Below, piece by piece: positions 8,474-63,564 of a stretch of 64,000 bases of DNA. A model generated the notes under the pieces. That model had not been told where the DNA came from. It searched no databases and worked only from the letters and a program-made list of their open reading frames with translations. The position numbers were made by a program, and so were the translations under genes. Origin of the DNA: Astropecten irregularis (Eukaryota > Echinodermata > Asteroidea > Paxillosida > Astropectinidae); the NCBI GenBank assembly GCA_963971285.1, contig OZ020250.1, positions 17,264,783-17,328,782 of the forward strand. Reading direction: 5' to 3'. The first letter of the stretch is position 1. Every line of letters begins with the position of its first letter.

Positions 8474-11400
8474 TCAGCTTGGTTTGGAGCTGTCCTGGGA
8501 ATAATCTTGGAGGATTCCTGACAAATGGTCGTTGTGCGTTTTGAACTTCCTTGGTCCTTTTCTACCACCCCGCTTCTTGCGTTGAGGTACCTACGAACAG
8601 AAAAACAAAGAATGAGAGTCAGATTTGTAAACTACCAAAGATTTTACCTTGGGTCCTTTGCGATGTTTGGGTGTTGCCACTTGGCTTAAAGTGATCCTAC
8701 TGCTTACCTTTTTTCCCTGTTGATATTGAAACCCTTGTCAACACCCAGATCCAGTGACTGAAGCCCTATAGGTTATTCACCGACATCATAAAATCACGTG
8801 ATTGGCCGTCAAGCTTTTCTATGTTGTCCATGGTTACCCGTAGGACACTGTACATTGGATGTGCACTGAAGCGTATTGTTTCGCATGTGCAATCATTGTG
8901 CTTGACGGCCAATGACATCACATGAATAACCTCTACATCACTCATTAACCCTATCCGTCCGCATGTAGCACAAAATACATGAGCTGCTTACCACACACTA
9001 CCACCGTCTCCACAGAGGGAACTGGGTCATATTAAGGCACCCATTACCACACAACTTGGCCCCTGGGTCGATTTCACGAAGCCCAACAATCGATTATAAC
9101 TCAACTGAGTTACGAAGGATAACCCAGGACATAGTATCCTATGCATACATAGCTATGTGGCGCTACAATCATGGCAATGTATCATAAGTACTACGATTGA
9201 TAGTAAGTTACGATGAGTTTGGTGAAATCGACCACTTGCATTGAATATACTGTTCAATGACTGTTGTGTGAGTTACTGCCAATGTGCAGTCATTATTTAA
9301 TAGTACTATGAACATCCACTCCTTCTGTAAGTGATTATTCCTCGAGCTGAATACTCACATGCTTCAAGCTGAGGTCCTCCATGGAAGAGATACCTTGCCT
9401 CCTGAGATGTTCCTCGATCTTACCCTCATCAATGGAGTCCACAGAGGTGGTATTCCACATCTCCTTCAACTCTGCATATTAAGAAAAAGACAATCATGTC
9501 TTATGGAGTTGCTACGTACAGAATTAAAAATTGCTATTAAAACGTGAAACATGTTACGACATGTGATTTCTCATGCTTAATGAATGCAATCTTAGTGAAG
9601 GCCACAATTTCTTTTTGAAAAGCAGCATCCTCTTTGAGTGAACTCCCGTGTACCGTTTCTCAGGTCGCAGCATTGCTAATGCTGCGCATATCTTCAATGA
9701 TCTTTGGGATATAGCGGTATGCGAGTGGTTTCATGGCTTCTGACTGCCAAACGAACAAAGATAATTGACCATTAGGGTCACTGCCAACATAGGGCTGGAT
9801 GGCTCAGTTGGTAAGAGCGCCGGTACGGTATTCCAGAGGTCACTGGTTCGAATCCAGCTCCAGCCACTTTTTCTTTATCCACTTTTCAATAACTACTTTT
9901 AACCTATTTAACTAGACCTTTGCTGTTGTGCCTTAATTCATTTAGTCTTATAGCCACTCAGCCAGACCCGTTCCACCCAACAAACTTAAGCAACCTTTAA
10001 CTGAACCGTCATCTTTTTACCTTCATCGATGGTGAGCTGGCTTGACTTATCATTGAAGAAGACGACTTTCCTCTTGTCAGGTCTAGTAATGATGATGACA
10101 AGATCCCCCAGGGCCTGTGGCAAAGAGAAGAGAGTACTTGTATAATTATCAATTGCATTCTGACGGAACCTTCTCAAGTATGCTGAACAGTGTTGTATCC
10201 GAGTCCACAACCTCCGAGGCCAAGGCCGAGTCCGAGTCATGGGTCTCCGAGGCCAAGGCCGAGGCCGAGGCCGAATTTCTCACTAGCAGCCGAGGCCAAG
10301 GCCGAATCCGAGTCATGGATCTCCGAGGCCGAGGCCAAGGCCGAGTCACACACAAGCATATCATTTCACTCTGCGATAGACTGTTTGCTATTCTAGACGC
10401 GGTACCCAAACTTTCCATTAAAATAATGCAGTTTATAACCAAACTAGCACAATTCACCATGCTCTCAAGTCATTACATTCGATGAATTACACACTAACTT
10501 TCTTTCTGTAAGTGTTTATTTAATGAAAAATTTTAAAATCTACCCTCTAAAATGTTGGGAAACACGTTTCAGTTTTAAATAATTTTTTTCCCGGCCTCGG
10601 GCCGAGTCATCATTCAAAATTCTTCGAGGCCGAGGCCAAGGCCGAGTCATGGACCCACGAGGCCGAGTCCGAGGCCGAGGCAGCAAATTTTCGGCCTCGA
10701 GGCCAAGGCCGGCCTCGAGTCATACAACACTGATGCTGAACATACATTACATTTATTTCAAGGCAACTCCATACTCTGGATTTTGGCAAAGAAATACAGA
10801 TTCATGGGCAAAAGTATAAAAAAAGGTAAAGTAACAGTCATCTGTGAAATTTCCAGTCCCATACAGTGCACACTTCTTGAAAAAAAACAGTGAAAAATGC
10901 TCACAGTAGTTTTGAATCTATTCACAGGAGTTTTGATCTTGCCGAGATCCTGAGATATTCTCTGAATTTTTAAATTCTCAAACAAAATTTTTATACAAAA
11001 AAAGGTTTGGAGCCCAAAACCGTTTCCTATTTTCAAATATGTTTTGAATTGCTGGAGAATTGGGAAGACGCTTCAAAAATGTCCCTTCATTTTGTCTGCC
11101 TAATGGCACAACTGTAGAGAATATTAGTGATTATAAGTCAGTACCTCGATACATTTCTCGTAGTTGGGTAAGCTCTCTTGTATTTCGTCCATCATGATCC
11201 CACCCAGTCCTTGCTGGTCATACTTCATCAGTAGACGCTGGAGCCCTTTGCGATTGCGCAGGCTGAAGGTAGCCTTGTAGAAGTACCTGTTATCCTCCAT
11301 TCCCATTTTGGGATTGTTGGGGAGGGCCTGTGCAAAGTAAGTTTGGTAGAAGACATAAGCAGAAGCCAGTTAGCTAAGCGCAAATTGAAAATTGCTTAGT

Positions 11401-16275: not shown

Positions 16276-19200
16276 ATGTCTGAAGTCATGGAGAAGACGT
16301 TCTCCTCAGTGTCTGGGTTCATCATGAATAGCCTCGGCTCAAGGAACATGGACGTGAGTCCTGGATTTCACAATCTCATACGTAGCATCAGGAGAGCACG
16401 ATCCAAGACTGTAAGTTGAACAAAGCTGAAGACCTGGGCCAAATTTTGTGGAATCCGTTACGGCCTATTTTTGTGCTTACGGGCACTGCTTTGTGTGAAA
16501 TCTATTTCAGATTGCTATCTTGGACGTTGCTATGGTGGACGTGGCCTACTGGATCGGTGTATTATGGCAAAGTGTCTTCCTTAGCCACACCGAGCATCAC
16601 AGTCCCTGTGGCTGGGCTTGAACCCATACTCGTACTTCTAATGAGTTCATACCGCCTGGCCTTGACTTGTTGATATTCAGCTTAGTGCTCCTTCCATTTC
16701 ATTTCATATATCTCCTAATTGTTAATTTGTCCCTCTTGCAATGTATAGGAAGAGGAGAAAGTTATCCGTAAAGAGTTGGACCTCTTGAAACTCAAACTTC
16801 AACAGCCTGACACAAGCGTGGTAAGTTCATTCTTTTATTCCAGTCATTAAAAAGTGAACAAAGACAAAGTTACTGGAGCGGGATTCGAACCAGCGACTAC
16901 CTGAATACCATATCAGCACTCTAAAAACTGAGCTATCTATATCTAGCCCTACATGTATGTTGATGGTGTCCCTATTAGTCAATTATCTTTCAGAAGCCAT
17001 GCAACCACTCACATACCACTATATCCCAAGGATCATTGAAGATACAGGCAGCATTAGCAATGCTGCAACCTGAGAAACAGTATATTGGAGATCACTCAAA
17101 GAGGGCACAGGTTTTTCACTGTTTTCAATCATAATCATCAAATAACCACAAGGGAAACTGAGTGGTTAACTTTAAGTCTTTCTTTTCTATTCTTTTTGAA
17201 AAACTTGGACACCGATTTAAAGGTAGTATCATAAGAAATTCTGTGGCTGTTTTTCACTGTTTTCTCAAAAAGTGGGCAACGTATGGGACTGAAATGTTCA
17301 CAGATGACTGTTACTGTATCTGTCTTTTTAATTTTGCCCATAAATCTGTATTTCTTTGATAAAACCATGATGAGTATGATATTACCTTTAAACAAAATGT
17401 TCACAGGTTATTGTAATGATACATGCATCTTGAAAACTAGAAGATTCAAATGTTTACCGGTAAGTGTCTGTTCTCATCAGGCAAAAATCAAGGAATACCT
17501 GGTACGGATCATGTACTGTGAGGTGCTGGGCCACTCAGCCGGGTTTAGCTACATTCACGCCATCAAGCTTGCCCAGCAGGGATCACTGGCTACCAAGAGA
17601 GTCGGTAAGAGTTCTAGGACCTTTCTCAAAGCTTGGCTCCAGCTCAGGCTCCGGCTTCGTCTCAGTAATCCATCTAGGCTGAAAATATAGGTTGTGGTTT
17701 TTCATTGAAGCTGAAGCTCTGTTTTCCTTTTCAAACCAGAGAATCTACTTCAGAACCGCAGCCAAAAGCTTCTATTTTAATACTCGTTATTTTAGAATGG
17801 ATTCACAAAATGGTGCCAGAGCCTGAACCTGAGCCTCCATTTCGAAAAGGACCAAAGTATGCACCATGAATTGATTTTAGGGGTGTACCAGACAAAGGGG
17901 CATAGGTGGCGAAGTGCGTTAGGCACTCACCTCTCACTAATGTGGCCCGGGTTCAATCCCGGCTTGGGTCATATGTGAGTAGAGTTGTGAATTGGTTCTC
18001 TCCTATGCTACGAGGGTTTTTCTTCGGGTTCCGGTTTTCCTCCCTCCACAAATATCAAACTCAGGCGATCTCAGGCTGTGCTCCTTGATCATGGGTTGAA
18101 GTGTGCTGGCAGCCAAAGGCGCCGCTCTCAACTCGATCACGTTGTAGCCGCATCCTTCGCAATTCAGCACTGGACATATTGTAATTGCTGGGCACCTGGA
18201 AAACAGTGTCTCGTTGAGAGGTTACCCCATGGTAAACAAGAAATGATTATATGAAAACAAAATGTTTACTCTACCAGAGCATGAACATAAATGAACTGGC
18301 AACCTCATACTCTAGCACTCCTTCTGTCTGTAACCGTGTAGTCAACCATGGTTTCCAAATTCCATGACGTCATTGTCTCCTAGGTTACCTGGCAATCTCC
18401 CTGTTCCTCCATGAAAACCACGAGCTGATCCTTCTCCTGGTCAACACCATCCAGCGTGACCTGAGCAGCTCCAACATGCTGCACAACTGCATGGCGCTGG
18501 CTGCCGTATGCAAGCTGATTGGCTCAGAGATGGTACCTGCCGTCCTGCCATTGGTCGAAGATAAACTCAAACATTCAAAGTAAGATTTATGTAAAGCATT
18601 TCTGCATCACTTTACTTCCATTACTCTGGACGTTTTTTCGGCATGTTTTCACAGGAGAGGAATTATCCACGGAGTTACATTGTTCACAGTAGAAAATGGC
18701 ACAAAAGATCATGCCAAAGGCAGGGTTATCATGCAATGGCTTGGCCCAACTTATGTGATAAAACTGCATTGTAATTTTAGTCAGGAACATTGATATGCAC
18801 TTGCAATGAAACTATTAAGTTTGTGTACTAGACATTCATATGGGCTTTAAACTGGGATTAGGGTTAGGGTTCGGTGAGCCAAACGTTTGCCTTAAACTGT
18901 CCCATGTGGAATGAATAAAGAATTTTTTAGTTGACTTTGAATTGAATTGAATTGAATTGAATTGATATGACATCTTCGCTAAGTTGCTCAATGTTTTTGA
19001 CAATCAACAGGGCTCTAGTCAGGAAGAAGGCAGTCCTAGCCTTGCGCTCCTTGTACTCCAAGGCACCTCACATGTTACAGAATCCAGACGCTCTTTTCAA
19101 GCAAGCGCTGTGCGATCGGGATGAGGCTGTGACCAATGCTGCTCTCCATATCCACAGCGACCTCATTAAGGTAACCTTTGTGACCTTACCACTAAGTTCC

Positions 19201-22200
19201 AAGGACTTACGTTGGTATATCCTTAAAGATTCAAGACCTTGAAAAGTGTAATCCAGTTTTAAAATGAGTTGTGTGTGCTGTCACTTGAACCTTGTCAATT
19301 GGAGGGCAGTTCTTTAGCAAACAGTGTAATCGTGAAGTGCATCTAGACTCCCTGCTGCATAAGGTAACCTACTTTTAGTAGAAGAAGGGTACTGATTCAG
19401 CAATTAGTCTGACCCTACAATATCTTATAAACTCTGACAGCATAAGGACAGCTTCCAAGTGGTAGGGCAGTTATTTAGCTAGCAGTCTGACCCTACAATT
19501 GCTTACAGCCTCCATGCTGCATAAGGTAACCCTCCTAGTGGCAGGGCAGATATTGAGCAAGCAGTTTGACCCTACAATGCCTTACAGATATAAGGTAACC
19601 CTCCTTGTGGCAGGGCAGTTATTGGGCAAGCAGTCCGACCCTACAATACCTTACAGACACCCTGCTGCATAAGGTAACCCTCCTAGTGGCATGGCAGTTT
19701 TTGAGCAACCCTACAATGCCTTACAGACTCCCTGCTGCATATAAAGGTAACCCTCCTAGTGGCATGGCAGTTATTGAGCAACCCTACAATGCCTTACAGA
19801 CACCTTGCTGCATAAGGTAACCCTCCTAGTGGCAGGGCAGTTATTGAGCAACCCTACAATGCCTTACAGACTCCCTGCTGCATAAGGTAACCCTCCTAGT
19901 GATAGGGCAGTTATTGAGCAAGCAGTCTGACCCTACAATACCTTACAGACTCCCTGCTGCATAAGGTAACCATCCTAGTGGCAGGGCAGTTATTGAGCAA
20001 GCAGTCTGACCCTACAATACCTTACAGACTCCCTTCTGCTTTTAGAGGTAACCCTTCCAGCATTTTTAAGAATTTGTAATAGCTGTACCCTCATTATGAA
20101 CCTTTTGTGAGTACAGGACACCATCTTGTCCCTTTTCTTTGCTCAGGAGAACCCCGCTGCACACAAGCAGTTGGTGCGCCCTCTTGTGGCTGTTCTCAGA
20201 CAGGTCGTGGGGCACAAGCTGTCATCGGACTTTGAGTACCATGGCATCTCAGCTCCCTGGACGCAAATCCGCATTCTCAAGATGCTGGCCAGACTAGGAG
20301 CTGGGGACGAGTAGTAAGTACAGAGTCATTGTGATGTTTATTGTGGTTTTAGTTTTGTGAATTTCCAGGTCTTTGATTGTGTGTTTTTGTGTGTGAAAAT
20401 TTGACCCTTTACTGTTTCACTGAGAGGGACTGTTTTACATAAGTTGCACTATTTATAGTGAGCATATAGCATCTTTGCAACGAGGGTGTTGCTCAGCTGG
20501 GATATGGTGACTGCTTATCTTTGCTCGTCAGAAGCCACCAAACCATTCATGTACAAAATATTGATTTTTATGCCGATTCACCCGGTTGTCAGATTATGGC
20601 TAGCCACAGGGAAGTTTTCTGGTATCAAGAGTTGTAATCTGGGCAAGTCGTGATCTGTTGCAGAGTGTGCGCCCAAATTCCTGTTTTCTTCTAATCGCAA
20701 AGAAGTTTCAGAATTTTAAAAAGACAATTGTAGCATTTCACGTCAGCCTCACAGATTACCAAGTGTTCTATGGATGTCAAATGGTTGCCACTGAGGTGCC
20801 ATATAAACTGTGTCCCTGCCAGAGTGTTCTGATGACACTTGCTCTTCCCTTCTCTTTACCAGCTATAGTAGTTTAATGTACGACCTCTTGGATGACATCA
20901 TCCAGCAAACATCGGCTCTGAGCCACAACATCGCCTACGGTGAGTCCTGATAACAAACCAAGTTTGTCAAGAAGACATTAGACATGATTTAGCCAATGCC
21001 TGCTCGGTCATTATGAACATATCCCCTCTAGGCCACTCTATCCAACATGACAGTCCTTAGCTCCTACTACTACTACTACTACTACTATGTCAAGAAGACA
21101 TTAGGCATGATTTAGCCAATGCCTGCTCGATCATCATGAACATATCCCCTCCAGGCCACTCTATCCAACATGGCAGTCCTTAGCTCCTACTACTACTACT
21201 ACTACTACTATGTCAAGAAGACATTAGGCATGATTTAGCCAATGCCTGCTCGATCATCATGAACATATCCCCTCCAGGCCACTCTATCCAACATGGCAGT
21301 CCTTAGCTCCTCCTCCTACTACTACTACTACTATGTCAAGAAGACATTAGGCATGATTTAGCCAATGCCTGCTCGATCATCATGAACATATCCCCTCCAG
21401 GCCACTCTATCCAACATGGCAGTCCTTAGCTCCTACTACTACTACTACTACTACTATGTCAAGAAGACATTAGGCATGATTTAGCCAATGCCTGCTCGAT
21501 CATCATGAACATATCCCCTCCAGGCCACTCTATCCAACATGACAGTCCTTAGCTCCTCGATACTGTCTATACCAGTGTCCCTCTTCCAGGGCTGGAAATA
21601 AGGTTTGGTGAGGGCAAGGCCAATTTTCCATTGCAAGGGGCACTTACATTGGAAATCATAATGTCTATGGAAACATTTGCAGGGGGCACGAAGGCCAAGA
21701 ACCAGGGCAACAAAGGCCATGGCCTCCGTGGGCTCTGTTTATTCCCACGCTTGCTCTTCCGTATTGCTAATGTAGTTTGTTTGATTTCGACCACGTTTTC
21801 TTGTTCCGTGGCATGGTTCCTAGAGAATTACTTTACTTGCTAAGTTGCTAGTAGTTCTGAGTGAATGTTGTGTCCTTCTAATGTCAGCCTTCTAGCTCAT
21901 AGCTTATTGACAGAGTTTGGGCAATCCTACATACCAAACGGGTCTCTTTCTTCTCTAATCCTTATTCTCTCAGCTGTGCAATATGAATGCCTGATCACTA
22001 TTGCCACCATCCACCCACAAGAGCAGCTCCTGACGAAAGCTGCCCAGTGCATCAGCAAGTTCCTCAAATCCTCCAATTACAACCTGAAATACATGGGTGA
22101 GTATCGGTGCCACACTGTTCTTGTCTGATCTACGACCTCTGACTTACGTAGTGGTGTTAAATGGTTTCCCCTATTCATTGTCAAAGGCTTACACTTGTAT

Positions 22201-25200
22201 ATTGTCTGAGTAGGAGCTTTGCTTTGACAGATGGCGCTCAGATGAGAGAAGCTGAAATCAAAACAGTACTTGAACATTTGAAGGAGCACCAGGGTAGGGC
22301 AATGACTAGGGGGCCACAGAGGCCATGGCCAGGGGGCACTAAAGCATTGATCAGGGACACCGAAGCACTAGACAATTTCTAGCTTGCTTCTTTCAAAGAA
22401 GTATGAAATGAAATAAGAAGCAGGAAACAGAAACACTAGCTAGCTGGTACATCTGCACAATGTTGCTTGTTAATTCATTCATTTGGCACGTGTAGGAGTC
22501 TGGGTTTAAGACTGCTCTAACACCAACTCAAGTTGGCACATTTCCACCAACAGAGGGCGTCAAAAGAATACTTCTGCCATCAATAGCTATACACCGATCC
22601 GACGGCGCGACCATGGAGGTAGAAAGCAGGCGGGGACACTGCAGTAATGGCGGACAGTATATCATGCCGTCGGATCGGTCTATACCAGAATCCCTCCTCT
22701 AAAAAAAGCTTGTTCCATTGTCGCTTGTTCGTCTTTGGATCTTTTCAGGAATCTGTGCACTGAGTGCAGTACTGAAGGTGTTTCCAAGCTGTGCTGATGA
22801 GCATCAGTTAACAGTCATAGACTGCCTGGACGATGCAGATGATACCATCAGATTCAAAGTAAGTTCAGCGAGATAGAACATCTGACAGACCTCCTACTTA
22901 AAGGCAACTTCATACTTTGGTTTTTGCCAAAGCAATACAGATTCATGGGCAAAAATATCAAGAAAGATACAGTAACAGTGAAATTTCCAGTCACATTCAG
23001 CGAAAAAAACAAGTGAAAAACGCTCACAGTATTTTCAAATCTATTCACAGGAGTTATGATCTCAACCCGAGATCAAAACTGTTTTTGGTCATTGGTTTTA
23101 CTCTTTCCTGGATAAATACAGCATTTCAGGCTGACAAATTTTAACTGAATGTTTGCTACCATCACCATCTTTATACCCAGTAAGTTATAGGCTGTCGTGA
23201 CGAATGCACCCACTGATTTGGTGGCTTGACTGTATGTAGCCAGTGTTTTCCTCAACTAAAGATTCCTGAGAATGAATGAATCCATGTGCCATTCCTCCTT
23301 TCTATACAGACCCTGGACCTCCTGTTCCAGATGACGTCCAGCGTCAACGTCCAAGCCATCTGTGACCGTCTCCTGACCCACCTTGAAGGAACCAGGGATG
23401 CATTCATCAGGCGGGATCTACTGACCAAGATCATCCGACTGGCCGAAGAATATCCTTCCATAAACTCAATGATTGCTTAGCTTGTGTGACAACATGGCAC
23501 ATTTACAATGGCCTAGATAGGGGGGGCATAGGTGGCAAGTGCATTAGGCACTCGCCTCTCACCAATGTAGCCCGGGTTCAATTCTGGCCTGGGTCATATC
23601 TGAGTAGAGTTGTGCGTTGGTTCTCTCCTATGCTTTGAGGGTTTTTCTCCGGGTACTCCGGTTTTCCTCTCTCCACAAAAATCAAACTCTTTGGATCTCA
23701 GGCTGTACTCCGTGATCATATATGGGTTGATGTGGCTAGCAGCCATGGGCGCCCATGAAATCCTGCTACTCGATCACATTGAAGTCGCATCCTTTGCAAT
23801 TCAGCACCCCAGCTGCGAGTACGGATGATTAGCCTCCCAAATTATTAGATAGGCGCTCAGACCTGGGGGATGATCCCCTACTTTCATATATGAATATGCA
23901 TATTTATCTCCCAGCCCGTGCTTTGGAAGGGGGTGGTTAAGCAACACATGGAGTTTTGTAAAACCTGTAATCTTATTAATGTATCTCCATTGCAAATACA
24001 AAATAAACGGAAAGGTGTGGTGAAACTCTGAAAAACGATTCCTTGAATGTTTGACAATGCAAGATAGTTGTAGTAGACGATTTAACCTCACAAGTTGTAA
24101 CTGCATAGTCCAAACCTCATCATGTATCTTACTGTTGTTTGTTGTAATAGCACTCCTCACTTGCGCAAAAAATAGCACACCGGATCTCAGACAAACATTG
24201 CAACCATGCAAACATGTGGTGGGTGCGCTTGTATGTGCATGCATGTGCATGAAGTTTGTCTGACATGCATCCGGGGATTTTGTACATGCGCGCACTGGCC
24301 AAATCACTTGTGTGACGTCATTAGTGCGGAGCACTATTATTACTACTGTTACTGTTGATTTCTTTAACTGGCATGTATTGCGGCATCATTGCTACAGTTT
24401 CACTTTTTCCTCATGTTTGTATAAACTATCGCCCCCCCACCTAGAAATTTTTTTGGGGGGATGCATCTACACCCCTGCACACACCCTGAACACACTGTGT
24501 GGTCTTTTAAACCTTAGACACATAATCCTTTTCTTCTGTAGTTAGGAAGTTCATAAACAGTGCCAATTTACAGTTGTAGAGATTGTATGTCCTTAATTTG
24601 TTTTTCCCCTACGCATCGACCATCGATTCATTGGTACCTGGATACAATGACACAAGTTCTTCTCATCGGTGGCAGTCTGGTTCCTTCAAGTGTGGTCAAC
24701 CAGATCATCAGTGCAATACGTAAAGGTATGTAGGATTCACTGGCTAGGTCATTGACCTCTAAAGGTCACAAGGTCGCAAGGTCAAAGTCTATCCATGGTA
24801 ACAAGGTCAAATCTACGTCGTAAAACAAATTCAGCTCCTAAGCTTAAACGAGGTTCACCCAGTAAAAACGGTTTACCAGCTAAAAGTAGTTGTTGCTTGT
24901 GACCAGTATCCAGCCCATAATGTTTGTTTTAATAGCGTGAAAATTTGCTAAGCATTATTTTTCTGCTTAGTGTGTCTGTTAAGTCGGTCAATCTAACGAT
25001 TAGCATGACATACCCACCACCCTGTCTTTAAGTATGAGAGCGAGATTCTCTTTCCTTTGGAGGACTTTAAACGCTAAATAGCGTTTGAAGAACGAGGCAT
25101 AAACCTTCTTCTGATCTGGCCGTCTTCAGTCTAAATGTAGTCTTGTGCCTGCCGATGGGAAGCCAAATTATTCCTTCCGATTATTTCAGAACTCAGATCC

Positions 25201-28200
25201 CAAGGAGAGTTACTCTCACAGTGCACCCCAAACCGCTACTCCTTGCAGAGCGCCAAGTGTTTTATACAGTGGAACACCGCTATAACAAACATGGAGGGAT
25301 GCACAGATTTTGTCTGTTATAGTGATTGTCCGTTATAGTGATTTAAAAAACCATATTCAGTATGTATTTTGCACAAACATTGCAAGCCAAGGATGATGGT
25401 CAGTATAGCCAAATGTTCAGTATAGCGGTGTTCGTTATAGTGGCGTTCCACTGTATAAAGGTATGGTACACCGTTTAACTCTTTCTTGTCATTCTGCTGA
25501 TGACCTCTTAGACTCTCTGAGTGGGGGCGATGTCGCACAGCACGCCCTGGGCCTCTATCTGCCTCACATCAGCGAGACAAAGGCCACATCCAACCAACTC
25601 ATCCAGATCAGTGCCTGGGTAAGAAACAGTTGTGTCCCTCAGAACTCTGCACAGGGGCTTTTCACGGAATGTACTCCAGAGCAAAGATTATGTAGCGCTA
25701 CGCGCAAGATGGATAACTGATCATAGGGCGCGTGGTAATCGGTATGGAGATCGCCATTCTCCATACAGATTATACACGATCCGCCATTTTGGGGTGTAAA
25801 AAGCGAGTAGTTTGTACACGGGACATATGGGAGCTGGGAGATTTATCAAAGAAAGGAGAGTGTTAGGCAAGATTTTGGCCCGGATTCGATTAAAACTTAT
25901 TGTTTATTGTAAACAGAAATATTTGACATTGATGTGAAGCAGCTGAATATGAAAACGGCGATTTTTGGTGGATTTCTTGACCTACTTTTGCAAGTATCGC
26001 ACACATCGATCATATCATCTCCGTACGTGGAGCGGGCGCCCATGGCGATTACGCGTTTCAGGGAGAGTTCCCCATCTTGCGCGTAGCGCTATATAATCTT
26101 TGCTCCAGAGTGAGGTCTTTTGCTTTTGTTCCATGCCTGTCACTCTTTCTCTTCTAATTCTCAAAACTCACACTTGTCCCATACCCAGTGGCATTTCTAT
26201 GAGGGCACATGCCTGGGGTGCCACTTTTTACGGGATGCAAAAAATGCAAAAGGCAAAAAAGAAGCCAAAAAAGGTAGATTTATTGTTGAAAGTTATTGGA
26301 AATTTAATCCAATGAACTAAGAAAGATTCTAATTTCAAATTTGTCTGATTTTTTCATTGGCATCAGAAGTTGGAATTTTGGGCACAATTTTAGCGCTTGC
26401 CTCGGGCACCATTTTCCCTTCATATGCCACTGCCTATACCCATACTGCAAGAAAGATGTTTTTGATATAACTTGCTGAGTGCGTTATAAAAAAAAGCATC
26501 CTATAAAGTGCCCTCTTTTGTTGAAAAGTGTGGCGCAATTGAGACTGCCTTTGATATTTTTTTTTATCAGGGGCCTTTCTCAAAGCTCGGTTCCAGCTCA
26601 GGCTCCGGCTCCGGCTCCATTTCGTGAATCCATTCTAAAAGTACGGGTATCAAAATAGAGACTTTTGGCTGCGGTTCGGAAGTAGATTCTTTGGTTTGAA
26701 AAAGAAAACAGAGAGGCTCTTCAGCTTCAAGGAAAAACCACAACCTATATTTTCAGCTTATAAATTACCAGTACAGAGACGAAGCCAGAGCCTGAGCCGG
26801 AGCCGAGCTTTGAGAAAGGCCCCTGATCATAGCCTTGTCCCCATTTTGCCTATAACCAGGTGCTTGGTGAGTTTGCCCATTCGTCCTGTGCACCTCCAGC
26901 TTCTGAACTCCTCATCAGTCTCTGCTCTCTGCTTAAGAAGAGACTAGACGAGGACACGAGGGTGTGGGTGATGGCCGCCCTGACCAAAGTGGTGGCCAGT
27001 TGCAGTGTGGTCAGTGACGATGTCCTGAAGGCCGTAGAGGCTGGTAAGAGGGGATCTTCAGCAGAGCTAAGGCAGGTGAGACAGGACTGCATTGCAGTCC
27101 CTTCAAACTTCTTGCATATCACAATATAAAGCGACATCAAAAAGTGTGATGAACATGTACATGTACATAAAATAATAAACCTGTGAAAATTTGAGAACAA
27201 TCAGACATCTTAGTCACGAGAAATTAGCAGAAACCCAACTCAATTTTTCTTATAAAACATGAAGAATGGTTTTGATCTTACCCCGAGATCAAAACTGCTT
27301 TCAGTCTTTGTTTGACTAATTTCTGGTTACATACACCATTTCACCATTTTACATACTACCAGCACCATCTTCATATTCTGAAAGTTGTACGTAAATCTGT
27401 GATCATTTCTGTTTTGGTATGTTACCAATCCTGTACTGTACCTTTAAAGAGGCCATTAAACTCAATTGTTTTTACTGATTACACTCTTACTATGTAGAGA
27501 GCATGTGAACTGGAGCTGCTGTGTACAGACATGGAGTTGATGAAAGATGTATACACAAGGCCCAGTTCTTTCCAAGATCTGCAGGTAAAAGGATTTACAA
27601 GCTACCCCCTTGGACACAAAACTATTTGGTGTGCCTTCTTTGGGCAATGACCAAACAAAGTGATTTTAAGGCTTCTGACTGCCAAACGGACAAAAATAAT
27701 TGACTATTAGGGACACCACCAACGTAGGGCTGGATAACTCTTCTTATATAGAGCGCCTGTACGATGTTGCGGAGGTCGCTGGTTTGACTTCCGTTTTTAT
27801 GTGCCAGTCTTGCTGTTTATTAGGTACGAAATGTATTTATTAAATACTTGTATGAAATAAAATGTTATAAGAATAGGCACAAATTCACGAAACTATTAGA
27901 AATCATCAGGTTTGACATATCAGACCACAGAGCCCAGTTTAATACCCGACTCCCCGTAGACCTAGACTAAGGCCATGTCTCAAATCTCTGGCTGCTGCCG
28001 CTGACTATGGCTGTGGCTGCTACTGCATCCTTGAACTGGATTCAGCCAGTAGAATTGGCTTTGGCTAGAGTTCCTGTATACGAACAGCTGAGGTCAGTAC
28101 GGCCACTCCTTTCTTTGTGGCTTGATATTCGTGATGTTGCAGCCGCAGCCGCAGCCAGACATTTGGGACACAGCCTTCATCCCTGACAGATCAGAAAACT

Positions 28201-31200
28201 TTACAACAATTTTCAGTTGTGAACCTGCGTTTGCATGTGTGTCGATTTGTTTTGAGCAGTTTGACTGGACCCTGTCCTTCTTGGATGAATATGTATCAGA
28301 TGCCTTGGCCCAGGGAGCGGTACCCTACAAGCCCAAACAGCAACGCCACGCTGAGAGACAACAAGAAACTCATGGTAGGAACTTTGACCTTTAAGGCTGT
28401 TTGAGTGTCCTTTATATTAAATTGGCCAGCCAAACCAGCCCGAACCTTAACAAGTCCAAGACCATCCAAGAATTTGTGCTATTACTTCTCTATTACTTCC
28501 TCAGTCATTTTTTTAAGTCGGTTGTCCATACACCATGTTTTTCATTCTACTCTGCAATGTGGTTAATGTTTATTTCATGTACAGTATCTCTTATTTTGTT
28601 TTGAATATTGTGGGGATTGGATGCCAGATGCACTCAGCGGCATTCGGTCAGCACATTATTTTTGACTGGCCAACTGAGTTACAATTTTGAGAATTTTTTA
28701 AAAAAAGTTTTGCTGCTGTTCTAACTGGCGTTTAGCCAGTTATCTGATGTTTATAGCCAAATACACTGTACATGGAGACATAAATATCCTCCCTTGATAA
28801 GAATCATTGTAAAAAGACATACATGGACATTATGTTTGGCTGGAGTGAGTACTGTATGTGTCATGCTTGGTTTTAAAGGTAACATCATACTTTGGTTTTT
28901 ATCAAAGAAATACAGATTCGTGGGCAAAAATACCAAGACAGATACAGTAACAGTCATCTGTGAAAATTTCAGTCCCATACGTTGCCCACTTTTTGAGAAA
29001 ACAGTGAAAAATAGCCACAGTATTTCTTAAGTCTTTTTTCTTTGATTTTTTATCTTTTAACAGATCAAAAAGATTTTTGGTTGTTGTTTTACTAATTTCT
29101 GGATGAATACACAATTTCAGGCGAAAAATTTTAACAGTATGTTTCTACCACTACCATCTTCATACCCTGTAAGTTATACGTAAATCTGTGAACATTTCTG
29201 TTTTGATTTCTTACCAAAGTATGATTCTACCTTTATGTGCGGTTAGAAAATGATAAGACAACTTCTCAAGGAATACTCATCTTTTATGGTTACCTCGTTC
29301 TTTCCAGACATCAAGCCGTTGCTCTCGGGGCTCAACTTCGTACCGTACCAGAGCCCCACCCCATCGCTGTCCAGCCACTTGACCGGAGCTACGTCCATCT
29401 CCACCCCAGAGGGTCCACTACCGGTCAAGTCGTCTTCTTCCCCCACCCCCTCACTCAGCTCCGGGGCCTCAGGAAAGAGCTCCGAACCAAAGACATCAGA
29501 AAGGTTTCTGTCCCTCAAACATTCACTTGCCATTGTATCTTCAAAGTTTGTTTAAAGGTAGTATCATACTTTGGTTAGAAACCAAAACAAAAATGTTCAC
29601 AGATTTACGTATAACTTTCAGGGTATGAAGATGGTGCTGGTAGAAACCTACCGTTAAAATTTTCCACCTGAAATGTCGTATTTATCCAGAAATTAGTAAA
29701 ACAACGACCGAAAATCTTTTTGATCTTTTAAAAGATCAAAAATCAAAGAGAAAAGAAATACTGTGGCTATTTTTCACTGTTTTTTCAAAATGTGGGCACC
29801 GTATGGGACTGAAATTGTCACAGATGACTGTTACTGTATCTGTCTTGATATTTTTGCCCATGAATCCGTATTTCTTTGATAAAAACCAAAGTATGATACT
29901 ACCTTTAACCCAAGGAATAGTTTTACCCCATTTGCGTAAAGAAATAGACGCTGCAACATTGAAGGACATCTGAGTCCTCCACAATGTCCAATGTCTCATT
30001 GAGATCCAATATAGAAATTTTTTGTCCCAAAATGACAATTTTTTTGCTTTTTATAAGAATCAAAAATGAATAAAATCACTTCAAAAGTAGCATCACACTT
30101 TCGTAGCTTACCAAAAAAGATATCTTCACAGATTTACCTATAACTTACAGGGTATAAAGACGGTGATGTTAGAAGCATACCGTGAAAAATGTCCTTCCTG
30201 AAATGCTGTATTTATCCAGAAGAGAGTAAAACCAAACACCAAAAACAGGTTTGATCTTAGGGCGATCATTACTCCTGTGAATAGATTTGAAAATACTGTG
30301 AACGTGAAAGTTAGCACCATATGGGACAGACAATTTCTCAGAATACTGTTGCTGTATTTTTCTTGATATTTTGCCCATGAATCTGCATTTCTTTGGCAAA
30401 AACCAGAGTTTTAACCAAAACCAAAGGTTTAAAGTCTTTTGAGAAAAATTTAATTTGTAGCAAAATTTCTCTGAATAAATTTTGAAGTATGTCAAGCATA
30501 TCCCCACCTTAGGCTTAACCACCAAAAATATAAGAATAGACAGGAGTTATTCATCTGTTACCTAAAGAAAAGACATCTGTTCATTTCAAAGAATCCGGGG
30601 AATTCAAGATAAAAAAATAAAAACCAATTTTTATTTATTTTTTTTTTTTTTTGCCACGTAGTTCAACCGGCTTGAAACTTGATGGAGTGAAGAGAGTGTG
30701 GGGTCAGAAGGGATACAGCAAGATGACGCCAACTACGAGGTGCAATTCACAGCCACAAGCAGTGGATAGTCGGGTGCCTGACTCGCCTACCATCACTCCT
30801 AGTAGTCCTGCCAGAGGACCCCAGCCCAGTGTGCAGGTACATTGCAATTTGCTGTTCAAACTTCACAGAGAGTATCCAAGAATAAAGATTGTAGACTAAA
30901 TCAGCTTTTCAGGCAGCAAGTGCAGAAAATGCATGAAGCTTTCCAATTATAATTTATTGAAAAGTGAACAAAGAAAAATTGACTGGAGCGGGATTTGAAC
31001 CGGCGACTTCCTGAATACCGTACAGGCGCTCTACCAACTGAGCCATCCAGCCCTACGTTGGTGGTGACCCCAATAGTCAATTGTCTTTGTTCGTTTGGCA
31101 GTCAGAAACCATGAAACCATGCATACACCACCATGCTCCAGGGATCGTTTCAATGATACACGCAGCAAGCTGCAACCTGGGAACGGTACATTATTATAAA

Positions 31201-37200: not shown

Positions 37201-39120
37201 AGCAGTTTGTTACTTGTAATGAGAAAATCTGTATGTGGATCGGTTTGCGGAAACACGGTGTAAGAATTGTTCGTACCTTTGCACTTCTAAACCGATCCAC
37301 ATACCAACTGTCACCATGCAAAGCCTCAAATCTTTCGAGAAAAATCTGGTTTAGTTATCCTTTGTTTATCAAGGGAAAACTATTCATGTGTAACAAAGCA
37401 TTGCATGCCAATCAGAGCTATGAAAATTACTTCTGGAGCCAATTTCATAGAGCTGCTTAAGCACATAATTTGCTTAAGCATGAAAAATCTTCCTTGATCA
37501 AACAGGATTGTCAACCAAATTTTCATATGTGATGTTAACTGCTTTTGACTTGTATTCAGCCATTGTTTGCTGAGCATAACATTCACAAGGAGCTGGCATA
37601 CTGATTTTATTTACCAAGATTTTTGGTGCTTAAGCAAATGTTGGTGCTTAAGCAGCTCTATGAAATTGGCCCCTAGTGCAAATATCTTATCCTCCTTGAA
37701 CTGTGTACACTTTGCGTACTTCCAAATCCTGTAGACCGCTGGAGTTACAGACAGCAGCATTTGGTGAGCTGTGGCCCAAGCACACCAGTGACTGCATCCA
37801 GTCCCTTGAGGTCGATGACCCTGTCTCCATGTCAAAGGTCATGACCCTCTTGACCCAGGAGTTGAACCTACACCTTGTCGAAATTATTGGTAAGAGACTA
37901 AGAGACTTAAGTAGATTGGTGTATTTTGTAATCAGTGTACAGTGTACAGTGAAAAGCCACTATAATGATCACCGCTATAGCAAACATATGGCATTTGACT
38001 AGATACCGAACATCATCCTTGGCTCCCATTTTCTGCGTACAATACGTACAATGGTTCTTTAAATCACTATAACGAACGACCACTATGTTCGTTATAGTGG
38101 CATTCCACTGTATTTATTATTTATTTGTTGTTGGTTGTTGAAGGTAACTTCATCCTTTGGTATTTGGCAAAGAAATGCAGATTCATGGGCAAAAATATCA
38201 AGAAAGATACAGTAACAGTCATCTGTGAATTTCCCAGTCCAGTCCCTGTTAAAAAACAGTGAAAACAGTCTATGGTATTTTCAAATCTATTCACTGTAGC
38301 TTTTATCTTCCGAAGATCAAAATTGTTTTTGGTCACTGGTTTTACTCTTTTCTGGATAAATACAACATTTCAGGCAAAAACAGTATGTTTCTACCATCAC
38401 CATCTTTATACCCTGTAAGTTATTGGTAAATTTGTGAACATTTCTGTTTCAGTATGCTCAAAATGTTTAGTTGACTTGACTTTCACATTCTCCTGGATAA
38501 CCCTGGTTTTATTCTTATTATTATATTATCAAGTAATTCTAAAACATTGAAACAGTGTTCCACAAGTTCTTGACAAACAACCATAGAGTTTTCTAATGCA
38601 AATTGATTTTGTTGCTGTTTTTGATTATGCATTATTTTATCTTCAGAAAAAAAAGTGTCAACAAGTTTCAATTTTTTTATAAAACATAAAGAATGGTTTT
38701 GATCTTATCCCGAGATCAAAACTGTTTTTGGTCTTTCTTTGACTAATTTCTGGATAAATACACCATTTCAGGCAGAAATATGTTAACAGTATGTTTCTAC
38801 TAGCACCATTTTCACATCCTGAAAGTTATACGTAAATCTGTGAACATTCATTTTGGGTATATGTTACCAATCCTGTACTGTACCTTTAAATTAGATTGTT
38901 GGTCTCCGCAACAACGATTTGACAAACTAATTGTCTTGAATTTGACCGGGCAGGTAATGAGGGCATAGCCTGTGGGAGTCTGCTCAGTGGACCAACCTGC
39001 CTCCTTCACATCAAGGTCCCTGACAAGAAATCCCTGGAGATATGGGTCCGATCCTCCAGTCAGCTCCTGTCGGACACCGTCGCCAAGCAATGCAGAGACG
39101 ACATCCTAAAGAGGTTATGA
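16276..39120 (+). CDS. AP4E1: AP-4 complex subunit epsilon-1, complete
   Basis: Twenty-two coding exons: 16276-16410, 16749-16820, 17481-17604, 18384-18579, 19011-19170, 20147-20313, 20863-20939, 21974-22096, 22749-22858, 23310-23449, 24613-24725, 25512-25618, 26860-27075, 27498-27584, 28260-28374, 29308-29503, 30662-30836, 32044-32187, 32350-33351, 36589-36788, 37735-37889 and 38954-39120 (TGA). Phases agree throughout, giving about 1326 residues; human AP4E1 is about 1137. Residues ~50-610 are the alpha-solenoid adaptin N domain (GFSYIHAIKLAQQG, GYLAISLFLHENHELILLL, KALCDRD-like QALCDRDEAV, APWTQIRILKMLARLG). A hinge of ~450 polar residues follows, mostly exon 19. The ear domain (from ~1105) ends with the conserved IIGNEGIACGSL block. 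An ATG at 16273 is an alternative start. AP-4 sorts cargo such as ATG9 at the trans-Golgi network. The intron after exon 10 is AT-AC. The donor of exon 16 (GTTTCT) is weak but keeps the frame. Confidence 0.95.
16843..17160 (-). mobile_element. tRNA-derived SINE-1, copy 3
   Basis: The head is on the minus strand (box B as GGGATTCGAACC on plus), followed by the shared body and ending CATCAAATAACCACAAGGG. It starts about 20 bases after AP4E1 exon 2. Confidence 0.7.
17217..17391. mobile_element. TTAA family A, internally deleted copy 4
   Basis: Both ends are kept (TTAAAGGTAGTATCATA and ATGATATTACCTTTAA) with TTAA flanks, but half of the interior is missing (175 bp). It lies in AP4E1 intron 2, upstream of exon 3. 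Confidence 0.7.
17611..17860. mobile_element. Family F palindromic MITE, copy 1
   Basis: It starts TCTAGGACCTTTCTCAAAGC, with GGCTCCGGCT-type arms and 'CTTTTCAAACCAGAGAATCT' inside. It begins 7 bases after AP4E1 exon 3. Confidence 0.7.
17896..18195 (+). mobile_element. tRNA-headed SINE-2, copy 2
   Basis: Starts GGGGCATAGGTGGCGAAGTG, with box-B-like GGGTTCAATCCC and the shared body through 'CATCCTTCGCAATTCAGCAC'. It lies in AP4E1 intron 3. Confidence 0.7.
18938..18962 (+). repeat. (GAATT)5 microsatellite
   Basis: Five GAATT units, about 50 bases before AP4E1 exon 5. Confidence 0.9.
19340..20060 (+). repeat. Tandem array, ~75-80 bp unit, about 9 copies, in AP4E1 intron 5
   Basis: Units contain CTTACAGACTCCCTGCTGC then ATAAGGTAACCCTCCTAG. 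The AAGGTAACC piece copies the true donor of exon 5 (ATTAAG|GTAACC at 19165-19176), so the array carries about nine donor-like sites. Confidence 0.9.
20966..21560 (+). repeat. Tandem array, ~122-bp unit, 5 copies, in AP4E1 intron 7
   Basis: Each unit starts GTCAAGAAGACATTAG, and the units are separated by a (CTA)n run of 5-8 triplets. Units are nearly identical, so the array is young. It begins 27 bases after exon 7. Confidence 0.92.
22588..22684. mobile_element. Short MITE with TATA(G/C)ACCGATCCGACGGC ends
   Basis: 97 bp; the left end TATACACCGATCCGACGGC is the inverse of the right end GCCGTCGGATCGGTCTATA with one mismatch. It ends about 65 bases before AP4E1 exon 9. Confidence 0.7.
22898..23185. 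mobile_element. TTAA family A, copy 5, right end lost
   Basis: It starts TTAAAGGCAACTTCATAC and keeps the typical interior up to the 'TATACCCAGTAAGTTAT' block. The right terminal repeat is absent. It belongs to the 'GGCAACTTC' subfamily with copies 3 and 10. It lies in AP4E1 intron 9. Confidence 0.65.
23450..24612 (+). other. AP4E1: AT-AC (U12-type) intron of AP4E1
   Basis: Exon 10 ends in phase 2 at 23449 (...CTGGCCGAAGA). The next bases are ATATCCTTCC, the consensus 5' site of U12-type AT-AC introns. Exon 11 starts at 24613 after CCCTAC, and a branch-site-like TCCTTAAT lies at 24590-24597, about 16 bases before the acceptor. Joining 23449 to 24613 restores one frame through LAEE-HRPSIHWYLDTM, which aligns with AP4E1 of other animals (LAEKYAPDNAWFIQTM in human). 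Reading through instead hits a stop within nine codons, and I see no GT-AG choice that keeps the alignment. The intron also holds a SINE-2 copy. Confidence 0.85.
23520..23815 (+). mobile_element. tRNA-headed SINE-2, copy 3
   Basis: Starts GGGGGGCATAGGTGGCAAGT, with the same body and the same CATCCTTTGCAATTCAGCAC end. It sits inside the AT-AC intron of AP4E1, 70 bases after its 5' splice site. Confidence 0.7.
25267..25453. mobile_element. pogo/Tigger-like MITE, copy 1
   Basis: The ends are CAGTGGAACACCGCTATAAC and the inverted GTTATAGTGGCGTTCCACTG, flanked by TA on both sides. TA duplication and CAGTGGAAC ends fit the Tc1/mariner pogo group. It is 187 bp and lies in AP4E1 intron 11, 58 bases before exon 12. 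Confidence 0.75.
25672..26112. mobile_element. MITE with long inverted ends abutting AP4E1 exon 12
   Basis: ACTCCAGAGCAAAGATTATG-TAGCGCTACGCGCAAGATGG at the left is repeated in inverted form at 26072-26112. The element is ~440 bp and begins 54 bases after the exon 12 donor. Confidence 0.7.
26568..26825. mobile_element. Family F palindromic MITE, copy 2
   Basis: The ends are CAGGGGCCTTTCTCAAAGC and the inverted GCTTTGAGAAAGGCCCCTG. The arms carry GGCTCC/GGCTCA hexamers. Its right end is only 34 bases before AP4E1 exon 13, so it abuts the acceptor region. Confidence 0.75.
27140..27447. mobile_element. TTAA family A, 'GGTACAGTACAGG' subfamily, copy 6
   Basis: The right end reads ACCAATCCTGTACTGTACCTTTAA, and the interior has the shared 'GATCTTACCCCGAGATC' hairpin. 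The left end is degraded. It lies in AP4E1 intron 13, ending 50 bases before exon 14. Confidence 0.6.
27660..27805 (+). mobile_element. tRNA-derived SINE-1, partial copy
   Basis: 'GGCTTCTGACTGCCAAACGG' body followed by the head (AGGGCTGGATAACTC, GAGCGCCTGTACG). It starts 76 bases after AP4E1 exon 14. Confidence 0.65.
27967..28176. mobile_element. Family I palindromic MITE
   Basis: The ends are CTAAGGCCATGTCTCAAATC and the inverted TTTGGGACACAGCCTT, with GCTGCGGCTG-type blocks inside. It lies in AP4E1 intron 14, about 85 bases before exon 15. Confidence 0.7.
28873..29235. mobile_element. TTAA family A, copy 7
   Basis: Nearly full-length: left TTAAAGGTAACATCATAC, right ATGATTCTACCTTTA. The internal 'AACAGATCAAAAAG' blocks are shared with copy 1. 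It ends about 70 bases before AP4E1 exon 16. Confidence 0.7.
29552..29908. mobile_element. TTAA family A, copy 8 (inverted)
   Basis: Perfect TTAA at both ends and matching terminal repeats. It starts 48 bases after the donor of AP4E1 exon 16, so one exon is bracketed by two copies of the same element (28873-29235 and this one) in opposite orientation. Confidence 0.75.
30077..30432. mobile_element. TTAA family A, diverged copy 9 (inverted)
   Basis: It begins 'CAAAAGTAGCATCACACTTT' and shares the 'CAGGGTATAAAGACGGTGAT' and 'GCCCATGAATCTGCATTTC' blocks. The ends are degraded. It lies in AP4E1 intron 16. Confidence 0.6.
30945..31197 (-). mobile_element. tRNA-derived SINE-1, copy 5
   Basis: A well-kept head on the minus strand (plus-strand ACTGGAGCGGGATTTGAACC ... 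CAACTGAGCCATCCAGCCC) with the shared body after it. It lies in AP4E1 intron 17. Confidence 0.75.
31570..31845 (+). mobile_element. tRNA-headed SINE-3
   Basis: Head CCGTGGCCTAGTGGTCTTGC with GGGGTTCGAATCCAGCC (box B), then 'TTCTTGGGCAAGACGCTTTA' and 'TGCTCCCCAGGGAG'. It lies in AP4E1 intron 17. Confidence 0.7.
34158..34202. repeat. Perfect short hairpin
   Basis: TGCCCTTATAGGTACACTC and GAGTGTACCTATAAGGGCA are perfect 19-base inverse arms with a 7-base loop. It lies in AP4E1 intron 19. Confidence 0.85.
35380..35620. mobile_element. MITE with AAAGAATTCCACTGAT ends
   Basis: Perfect 16-bp terminal inverted repeat (AAAGAATTCCACTGAT / ATCAGTGGAATTCTTT), 241 bp, in AP4E1 intron 19. A related end (AGAATTCCACTAATTGCCAT) lies at about 15718. 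Confidence 0.7.
36069..36219. mobile_element. Family C palindromic MITE
   Basis: The ends are GGGGTCAATTTCACGAAGCC and TTTGGTGAAATCATCCCC. It lies in AP4E1 intron 19. Confidence 0.7.
36282..36480. mobile_element. SINE-1 inverted dimer (head-to-head), 1
   Basis: A minus-strand head (ACTGGAGCGGGTTTCGAACT to GAGCCATCCAGTC) is followed within about 50 bases by a plus-strand head fragment (TTCGAATCCCGCTCTAGTCA ... TTTGTTCACTTTTCAATAAC). The two halves form a foldback. It lies in AP4E1 intron 19. Confidence 0.7.
36812..36985 (-). mobile_element. tRNA-headed SINE-3, partial
   Basis: The minus-strand copy shows 'CGCCTTGCCCAAGGACACAA' and 'GGTACCCATTAACTCCCGGG' on plus, the complement of the SINE-3 body. 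It starts just after AP4E1 exon 20. Confidence 0.6.
37000..37215. mobile_element. Family E foldback element, copy 2 (complete)
   Basis: Two inverted cores (ATCCTAGCAGGATCTTTCTC and GAAACATCCTGCTAGGATCG) face each other around 37070. Outer blocks end in TGAGCAGTTTGCAGCAGTTT. It lies in AP4E1 intron 20. Confidence 0.65.
37435..37673. mobile_element. Family B palindromic MITE, copy 2
   Basis: The ends are GGAGCCAATTTCATAGAGCT and GCTCTATGAAATTGGCCCC. It lies in AP4E1 intron 20, ending about 60 bases before exon 21. Confidence 0.75.
37947..38110. mobile_element. pogo/Tigger-like MITE, copy 2
   Basis: It starts TA-CAGTGAAAAGCCACTATAA and ends GTTATAGTGGCATTCCACTG-TA. It is a diverged relative of the element at 25267. 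It starts 57 bases after AP4E1 exon 21. Confidence 0.7.
38137..38470. mobile_element. TTAA family A, copy 10
   Basis: The left end 'GAAGGTAACTTCATCCTTTG' and interior match copy 5. The right end is degraded near 38470. It lies in AP4E1 intron 21, directly after a pogo-like MITE. Confidence 0.6.
38665..38889. mobile_element. TTAA family A, copy 11, left-truncated
   Basis: The right end ACCAATCCTGTACTGTACCT then TTTAA and the 'ATCCCGAGATCAAAACTG' interior match copies 6 and 17. It ends 64 bases before the last AP4E1 exon. Confidence 0.6.
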
Positions 39121-63484: not shown

Positions 63485-63564
63485 CTTCACAGAGAGATAG
63501 AGAGAACAACAGTTAAAGCATCGAGAGCTGCAAAGAGCTGCATCAACAACCCAAGATCTGGGGC

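What the first reader, a model, noticed from the sequence alone, without database searches (positions are those of the whole stretch)
23450..24612. AT-AC minor-spliceosome intron in AP4E1
The 5' site ATATCCTT, a TCCTTAAT branch-like site 16 bases before the end and a terminal AC all fit the U12 class. The join is needed to keep the AP4E1 frame and its alignment. AT-AC introns are rare in animal genomes, and this one has also taken a SINE insertion 70 bases from its 5' site.
Basis: partly seen in the sequence, partly recalled or inferred. Interest (0 to 1): 0.7.

Follow-up and report, generated by a model that had tools for sequence, protein, structure and literature searches.

The report
Ancient minor-spliceosome intron in AP4E1
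A trafficking gene of what looks like an echinoderm carries one intron of the rare AT-AC kind that is cut out by the cell's second, minor splicing machine; this is a sound but ordinary example, very likely inherited from early eukaryotes.

Summary
At window 23450-24612 (+) an intron ATATCCTT...TCCTTAAT...CCCCTAC interrupts AP4E1 at codon 435, phase 2. Fifteen exons (16276-28374) splice into one open 647-aa frame whose best PDB match is AP-4 epsilon, with no gap at the junction. The other 13 modelled introns are GT-AG. In the stretch scanned no GT-AG or GC-AG pair keeps the frame. The genome holds U11, U12, U4atac and U6atac genes and a CENATAC (CCDC84) homologue. AP-1 gamma of the same genome has an ordinary GT-AG intron at the same codon and phase. 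This agrees with a 2022 paper on pre-LECA introns, whose adaptin figure legend says that a shared intron in AP4 epsilon was classified as U12-type. Splicing itself is not shown: no transcripts were available. Interest is low; the useful addition is the AP4E (U12) / AP1G (U2) contrast at one site.

The parts
23450..24612 (+). AT-AC U12-type intron of AP4E1 (intron 10 of the model, phase 2, codon 435)
23450..23457 (+). U12-type 5' splice site ATATCCTT
   Evidence: consensus RTATCCTT from PMC2846911 (passages)
24589..24597 (+). branch site GTCCTTAAT, 7 of 9 to TTCCTTAAC; last A at 24596 is 16 nt from the intron end
24611..24612 (+). 3' terminal AC
23310..23449 (+). AP4E1 exon 10 of the model
24613..24725 (+). 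AP4E1 exon 11 of the model
16276..28374 (+). AP4E1, 15 modelled exons (Adaptin_N trunk), one open frame when spliced
37700..37999 (+). open frame holding an AP4E1 C-terminal exon, AP4E_app_platf domain (residues 13-65 of this frame)
   Evidence: 33 bits, cut-off 27
23521..23847 (+). SINE copy inside the intron
   Evidence: (41 matches listed including itself; 40 of 2622 first-look candidates scored)
23514..23521 (+). 5' target-site duplication TAGATAGG (overlaps the first base of the SINE match)
23846..23853 (+). 3' target-site duplication TAGATAGG (overlaps the last two bases of the SINE match)
24146..24338 (+). MITE-like repeat with inverted ends AATAGCACTCC / GGAGCACTATT
   Evidence: (40 matches listed including itself; 40 of 1613 first-look candidates scored)

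Best explanation
It is a U12-type (minor) spliceosomal intron of the AT-AC subtype in AP4E1. By the established mechanism, U11 pairs with the donor and U12 with TCCTTAA, leaving a branch adenosine at 24595/24596; U6atac then replaces U11 at the donor, and the intron is removed at 23449/24613. Shown here: the sequence signals, the frame and alignment, and the presence of the snRNA genes and of a CENATAC homologue. Inferred: that splicing happens, and at this pair. Its position is most likely ancient: the AP-1 gamma paralogue has a GT-AG intron at the same codon and phase, so an intron probably stood there before the AP1G/AP4E duplication, and the two copies now differ in type, most simply by conversion of the gamma copy from U12 to U2. 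The SINE and the MITE-like element are later, passive insertions (inferred).
For: Spliced 15-exon frame open, junction phase 2 at codon 435. Ungapped alignment to AP-4 epsilon across it, LAEEHRPSIHWYLDTM against LAEKYAPDNAWFIQTM. No frame-keeping GT-AG or GC-AG alternative in the stretch scanned. U12 132 bits, U6atac 139, U11 101, U4atac 87, each above its gathering score. CCDC84/CENATAC: 5 matched stretches on one contig, best 72.9 bits; [quoted passage not shown] AP1G: 1 of 11 modelled introns falls exactly on the AP4E1 position, GTGAGTACTG...CCCTAG. PMC9120149 (section 9): shared intron in AP4 epsilon classified as U12-type.
Against: No RNA evidence. Branch A to end is 16 nt, longer than the 11-13 nt optimum (PMC3584512, passage). 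A pyrimidine run TTTTTCCCC precedes the end, whereas U12 introns usually lack such a tract (same passage). The branch site departs at two of nine places. U11 pairs still better with the AP1G donor (-8.2), so U11 energy does not discriminate. An attempted control, finding a known AT-AC intron (PHB2) in this genome, failed. For antiquity: only 1 of 11 AP1G introns coincides (about 0.7% chance for this one intron, about 9% for any of the 14; my estimate from 555 aligned columns); AP2A has no intron there and AP3D none at that codon; I could not see the position of the published AP4 epsilon intron.
Confidence: 0.95

Rival explanations
1. A U2-type intron with AT-AC ends, removed by the major spliceosome as in some sodium-channel genes.
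For: AT-AC ends occur in U2-type introns too (PMC2831892, passages); a pyrimidine run precedes the 3' end.
Against: The AT-AC U2-type introns of sodium channel genes have G at +5 (PMC2831892, passage); here +5 is C and the whole octamer is the U12 consensus. The donor does not pair with the recalled U1 5' end (+1.4).
Confidence: 0.02
2. The true junction is a GT-AG pair elsewhere and the AT-AC match is chance.
For: A matching donor/branch/acceptor pair arises somewhere in 42 of 200 simulated windows, so the motifs alone prove little.
Against: No GT lies at 23400-23483, and the one at 23484 is past the in-frame TAG at 23478. No GT-AG or GC-AG pair with intron start 23426-23480 and end 24579-24658 keeps the frame. 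Joins from donors further upstream were not scanned; they would remove conserved residues of exon 10. The AT-AC pair gives an ungapped alignment.
Confidence: 0.02
3. The intron is U12-type, but its shared position with AP1G is a coincidence of two separate insertions rather than one pre-duplication intron.
For: Only 1 of 11 AP1G introns coincides with one of the 14 modelled AP4E1 introns; two others lie 4 and 8 nt away without coinciding.
Against: The coinciding AP4E1 intron is the only U12-type one of the 14, and an independent survey reports a shared U12-type intron in AP4 epsilon reconstructed for LECA (PMC9120149).
Confidence: 0.2

Closest known systems
U12-type AT-AC introns (minor spliceosome), e.g. 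those of PHB2, STX6 and KCMF1 in a table of PMC2831892 (passage)
   Same: U12 donor consensus, TCCTTAAY branch site close to the end, AT-AC ends, a single minor intron among many major ones
   Different: Branch-to-end distance beyond the optimum and a short pyrimidine run; two transposable elements inside
Shared LECA intron in AP4 epsilon classified as U12-type (PMC9120149, Fig. 3 legend)
   Same: Same gene family, U12-type, at a position shared with a paralogue
   Different: I could read the legend only; codon and phase of the published intron were not visible, so identity of position is inferred
AP-1 gamma (AP1G) intron of the same genome, contig C9
   Same: Same aligned codon and phase 2
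   Different: U2-type GT-AG (GTGAGTACTG...TTGCTTCCCTAG), 594 nt, no U12 signals seen by eye

Membership tests
U12-type intron | 5' splice site RTATCCTT | tested here: met
   ATATCCTT at 23450-23457
U12-type intron | branch site close to TTCCTTAAC near the 3' end | tested here: met
   GTCCTTAAT, 7 of 9
U12-type intron | short branch-to-end distance (optimum 11-13 nt) | tested here: inconclusive
   16 nt from A24596; optimum from PMC3584512, passage
U12-type intron | no distinct polypyrimidine tract | tested here: inconclusive
   TTTTTCCCC before TAC
U12-type intron | host has U11, U12, U4atac and U6atac | tested here: met
   one match of each above the gathering score; only the best 39-49 candidates per family were scored, so counts are lower bounds
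U12-type intron | excised by the minor spliceosome in the cell | not testable with these tools
   no RNA data
AT-AC (A-type) subtype | AT...AC ends | tested here: met
AT-AC (A-type) subtype | splicing promoted by CENATAC | not testable with these tools
   a CENATAC homologue exists; dependence itself needs RNA
AP4E1 | Adaptin_N trunk closest to AP-4 epsilon, and AP4E appendage | tested here: met
LECA U12 intron of AP4 epsilon | position shared with a paralogue | tested here: met
   AP1G, same codon and phase
LECA U12 intron of AP4 epsilon | same codon and phase as the published one | not testable with these tools
   figure not held, supplement look-ups capped at 0
SINE | high copy number, target-site duplication | tested here: met
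SINE | tRNA-derived head with Pol III boxes | not tested
   A- and B-box-like stretches seen by eye only, motifs recalled

The most novel reading that the evidence does not exclude
AP4E1 and AP1G of this genome hold one intron inherited from before their pre-LECA duplication, kept as U12 AT-AC in one copy and as U2 GT-AG in the other: a type conversion at a single ancient site still readable in one animal genome.
Probability: 0.7. Interest if true: 0.35.

Novelty: new member of a known kind. Interest (0 to 1): 0.2.

Why it matters
A gene predictor that allows only GT-AG would break AP4E1 here. The contrast with AP1G at the same codon gives one testable example of how an ancient intron may have changed spliceosome. 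Neither point changes current views of minor introns.

Tried and rejected
A U12 reading of intron 5 (19171-20146): its donor GTAACCTTTG matches the U12 consensus at 8 of 9 positions, but its best branch-like match is 6 of 9 and 5 nt from the end, and it has a pyrimidine-rich 3' end and ends in CAG; I take it as U2-type with a poor donor. A second ATATCCTT at 19217 inside that intron has no partner acceptor by the rule.

A positive control for AT-AC introns in this genome through PHB2 failed. Of 14 Band_7 matches I fetched seven loci covering 9. I translated the matches of six loci; they looked stomatin-, flotillin- or SLP-2-like (named by eye), and I recognised no prohibitin. Donor motifs turned up in six of the seven loci, none that I could tie to an exon end.

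Human orthology by HGVS numbering (c.1316/c.1317) gave two papers, neither with AP4E1. AP4E1 with U12-type, AP4E1 with minor intron and amphioxus with U12-type introns gave 0 papers. A looser search listed 40 of 179 papers, AP4E1 occurring in one, an epilepsy review. Adaptin with several U12 terms listed 15 of 207, none holding adaptin; adaptin with U12-type gave 13, 10 listed, and led to PMC9120149. My first guess at the organism, amphioxus, was dropped after reading the mitochondrial code.

Full report
The place. The window lies at G000:C14:17264783-17328782 of a 476-Mb assembly in 168 contigs. A mitochondrial COX1 on contig C168 reads AAA at positions that I recall as conserved asparagines (three of its four AAA codons), AGA as serine, TGA as tryptophan and ATA as isoleucine. 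That is the echinoderm/flatworm code; I take the genome for an echinoderm, which the code alone does not prove.

The gene. I modelled 15 exons at 16276-28374 (+). Spliced, they give one open 647-aa frame. It matches Adaptin_N at 273 bits. Of 38 distinct PDB sequences matched, AP-4 epsilon is best by far at 492 bits, followed by AP-1 gamma at 213. The AP4E-specific appendage domain PF14807 lies downstream in 37700-37999. The exons between 28374 and there were not modelled, so the count of 14 introns covers the trunk only.

The intron. Of the 14 modelled introns 13 are GT-AG. The exception runs from 23450 to 24612, ATATCCTTCC...GTCCTTAATTTGTTTTTCCCCTAC, and splits codon 435 after its second base. 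Across the junction the protein aligns without a gap to AP-4 epsilon. A scan of frame-keeping joins with intron starts 23426-23480 and ends 24579-24658 listed 12 pairs among five allowed kinds of ends; none was GT-AG or GC-AG, and only 23450/24612 kept the length exactly. No GT occurs at 23400-23483, and the frame meets TAG at 23478 before the next one.

Chance. RTATCCTT occurs 6 times in the window against 4.45 expected and TCCTTAAY 2 against 5.5, so neither is enriched. Requiring a donor, a branch site and a fitting end within 5 kb leaves exactly one pair in the window, this one, but 42 of 200 simulated windows also have at least one. The weight comes from position: the pair falls on the two bases that the reading frame and the alignment demand.

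Machinery. The genome has an above-threshold match for each of U12 (132 bits), U6atac (139), U11 (101) and U4atac (87), and five stretches matching CCDC84/CENATAC on contig C25. [quoted passage not shown] By duplex energies the donor pairs with the U11 5' end at -6.2 and with U6atac at -6.4 kcal/mol, the branch site with U12 at -6.5, and the donor with the recalled U1 5' end at +1.4. The U6atac duplex that the program chose uses GAAGG rather than the AAGGA stretch that I recall as the natural partner, so this energy is only a rough guide. U11 also pairs with the AP1G donor (-8.2), so U11 energy alone does not tell the two types apart. U1 does: -12.1 for the AP1G donor and -5.6 for AP4E1 intron 9, the two other donors compared.

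Points against. The last A of the branch site is 16 nt from the end; the optimum is 11-13 (PMC3584512, passage). A pyrimidine run lies between them. Both leave the U12 reading intact but make this a somewhat atypical 3' end. A control through PHB2 failed (see Tried and rejected).

Age. In the same genome AP1G on contig C9 (an exon of it matches AP-1 gamma best) has 11 modelled introns, all GT-AG where GC-AG and AT-AC were also allowed; its tail beyond residue 532 of the query was not modelled. One intron, GTGAGTACTG...TTGCTTCCCTAG, splits the aligned codon after its second base: GAA AG|A CAT in AP1G, GAA GA|G CAT in AP4E1. Mapped on an alignment of the two proteins, this one has offset 0; the other 10 do not coincide, two of them lying 4 and 8 nt away. 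AP2A (named by its PDB match) has no intron there. AP3D has none at that codon; its nearest one downstream splits a tryptophan codon some 7 to 11 codons on, depending on the alignment. By my estimate a given AP4E1 intron would hit one of 11 AP1G positions by chance in about 0.7% of cases, any of 14 in about 9%. Alone this is suggestive. PMC9120149 (passages; section 9) reconstructs adaptin introns in LECA and says in the legend of Fig. 3 that a shared intron in AP4 epsilon was classified as U12-type. That fits this intron, but I could see neither the figure nor the supplement.

Rarity. AT-AC introns are about 26% of human minor introns (PMC10639083, passages) or 24% (PMC8280824, passages). [quoted passage not shown] One AT-AC intron in an echinoderm gene is therefore expected.

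Repeats. The SINE at 23521-23847 is flanked by TAGATAGG on both sides. Of 40 other matches listed 39 are 92-93% identical to it and one, partial, 90%; only 40 of 2622 first-look candidates were scored. Two more copies lie in the window, at 17897-18170 and 3497-3718, 84% and 80% identical. The MITE-like element at 24146-24338 has inverted ends AATAGCACTCC/GGAGCACTATT, with similar ends in the other full copies inspected, and 39 other listed matches, 40 of 1613 candidates having been scored. Together the two make up 520 of the 1163 nt.

Verdict. Observation confirmed; interpretation supported; ordinary in kind. The most interesting residue is the U12/U2 contrast between AP4E1 and AP1G at one site.

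Noticed in passing
19171-20146: AP4E1 intron 5 has a donor GTAACCTTTG that is 8 of 9 like the U12 donor but a U2-like 3' end, and holds a 79-bp minisatellite (19345-20039, 9.2 copies) whose unit contains AAGGTAACC, resembling the donor context.
   Followed up: partly
   Followed up: yes
20965-21557: 123-bp tandem repeat, 4.8 copies, 97% matches, inside AP4E1 intron 7.
   Followed up: no
11127-11369 (-): Open frame with a match just under the cut-off (25.2 of 26 bits) to TFA2_Winged_2, suggesting a TFIIE beta gene.
   Followed up: no
57896-63486 (-): Three open frames with weak matches to Sugar_tr or MFS_1, all below the curated cut-offs, suggesting a transporter gene on the minus strand.
   Followed up: no
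L039 (G000:C131:32162-33484): A COX1 match in a 552-codon frame without internal stops, unlike the mitochondrial one; the contig may be bacterial (contaminant or symbiont) in this assembly.
   Followed up: no
L041 (G000:C25:9951047-9952018): A partial COX1 with 7 TGA on contig C25, a large contig, possibly a nuclear copy of mitochondrial DNA.
   Followed up: no
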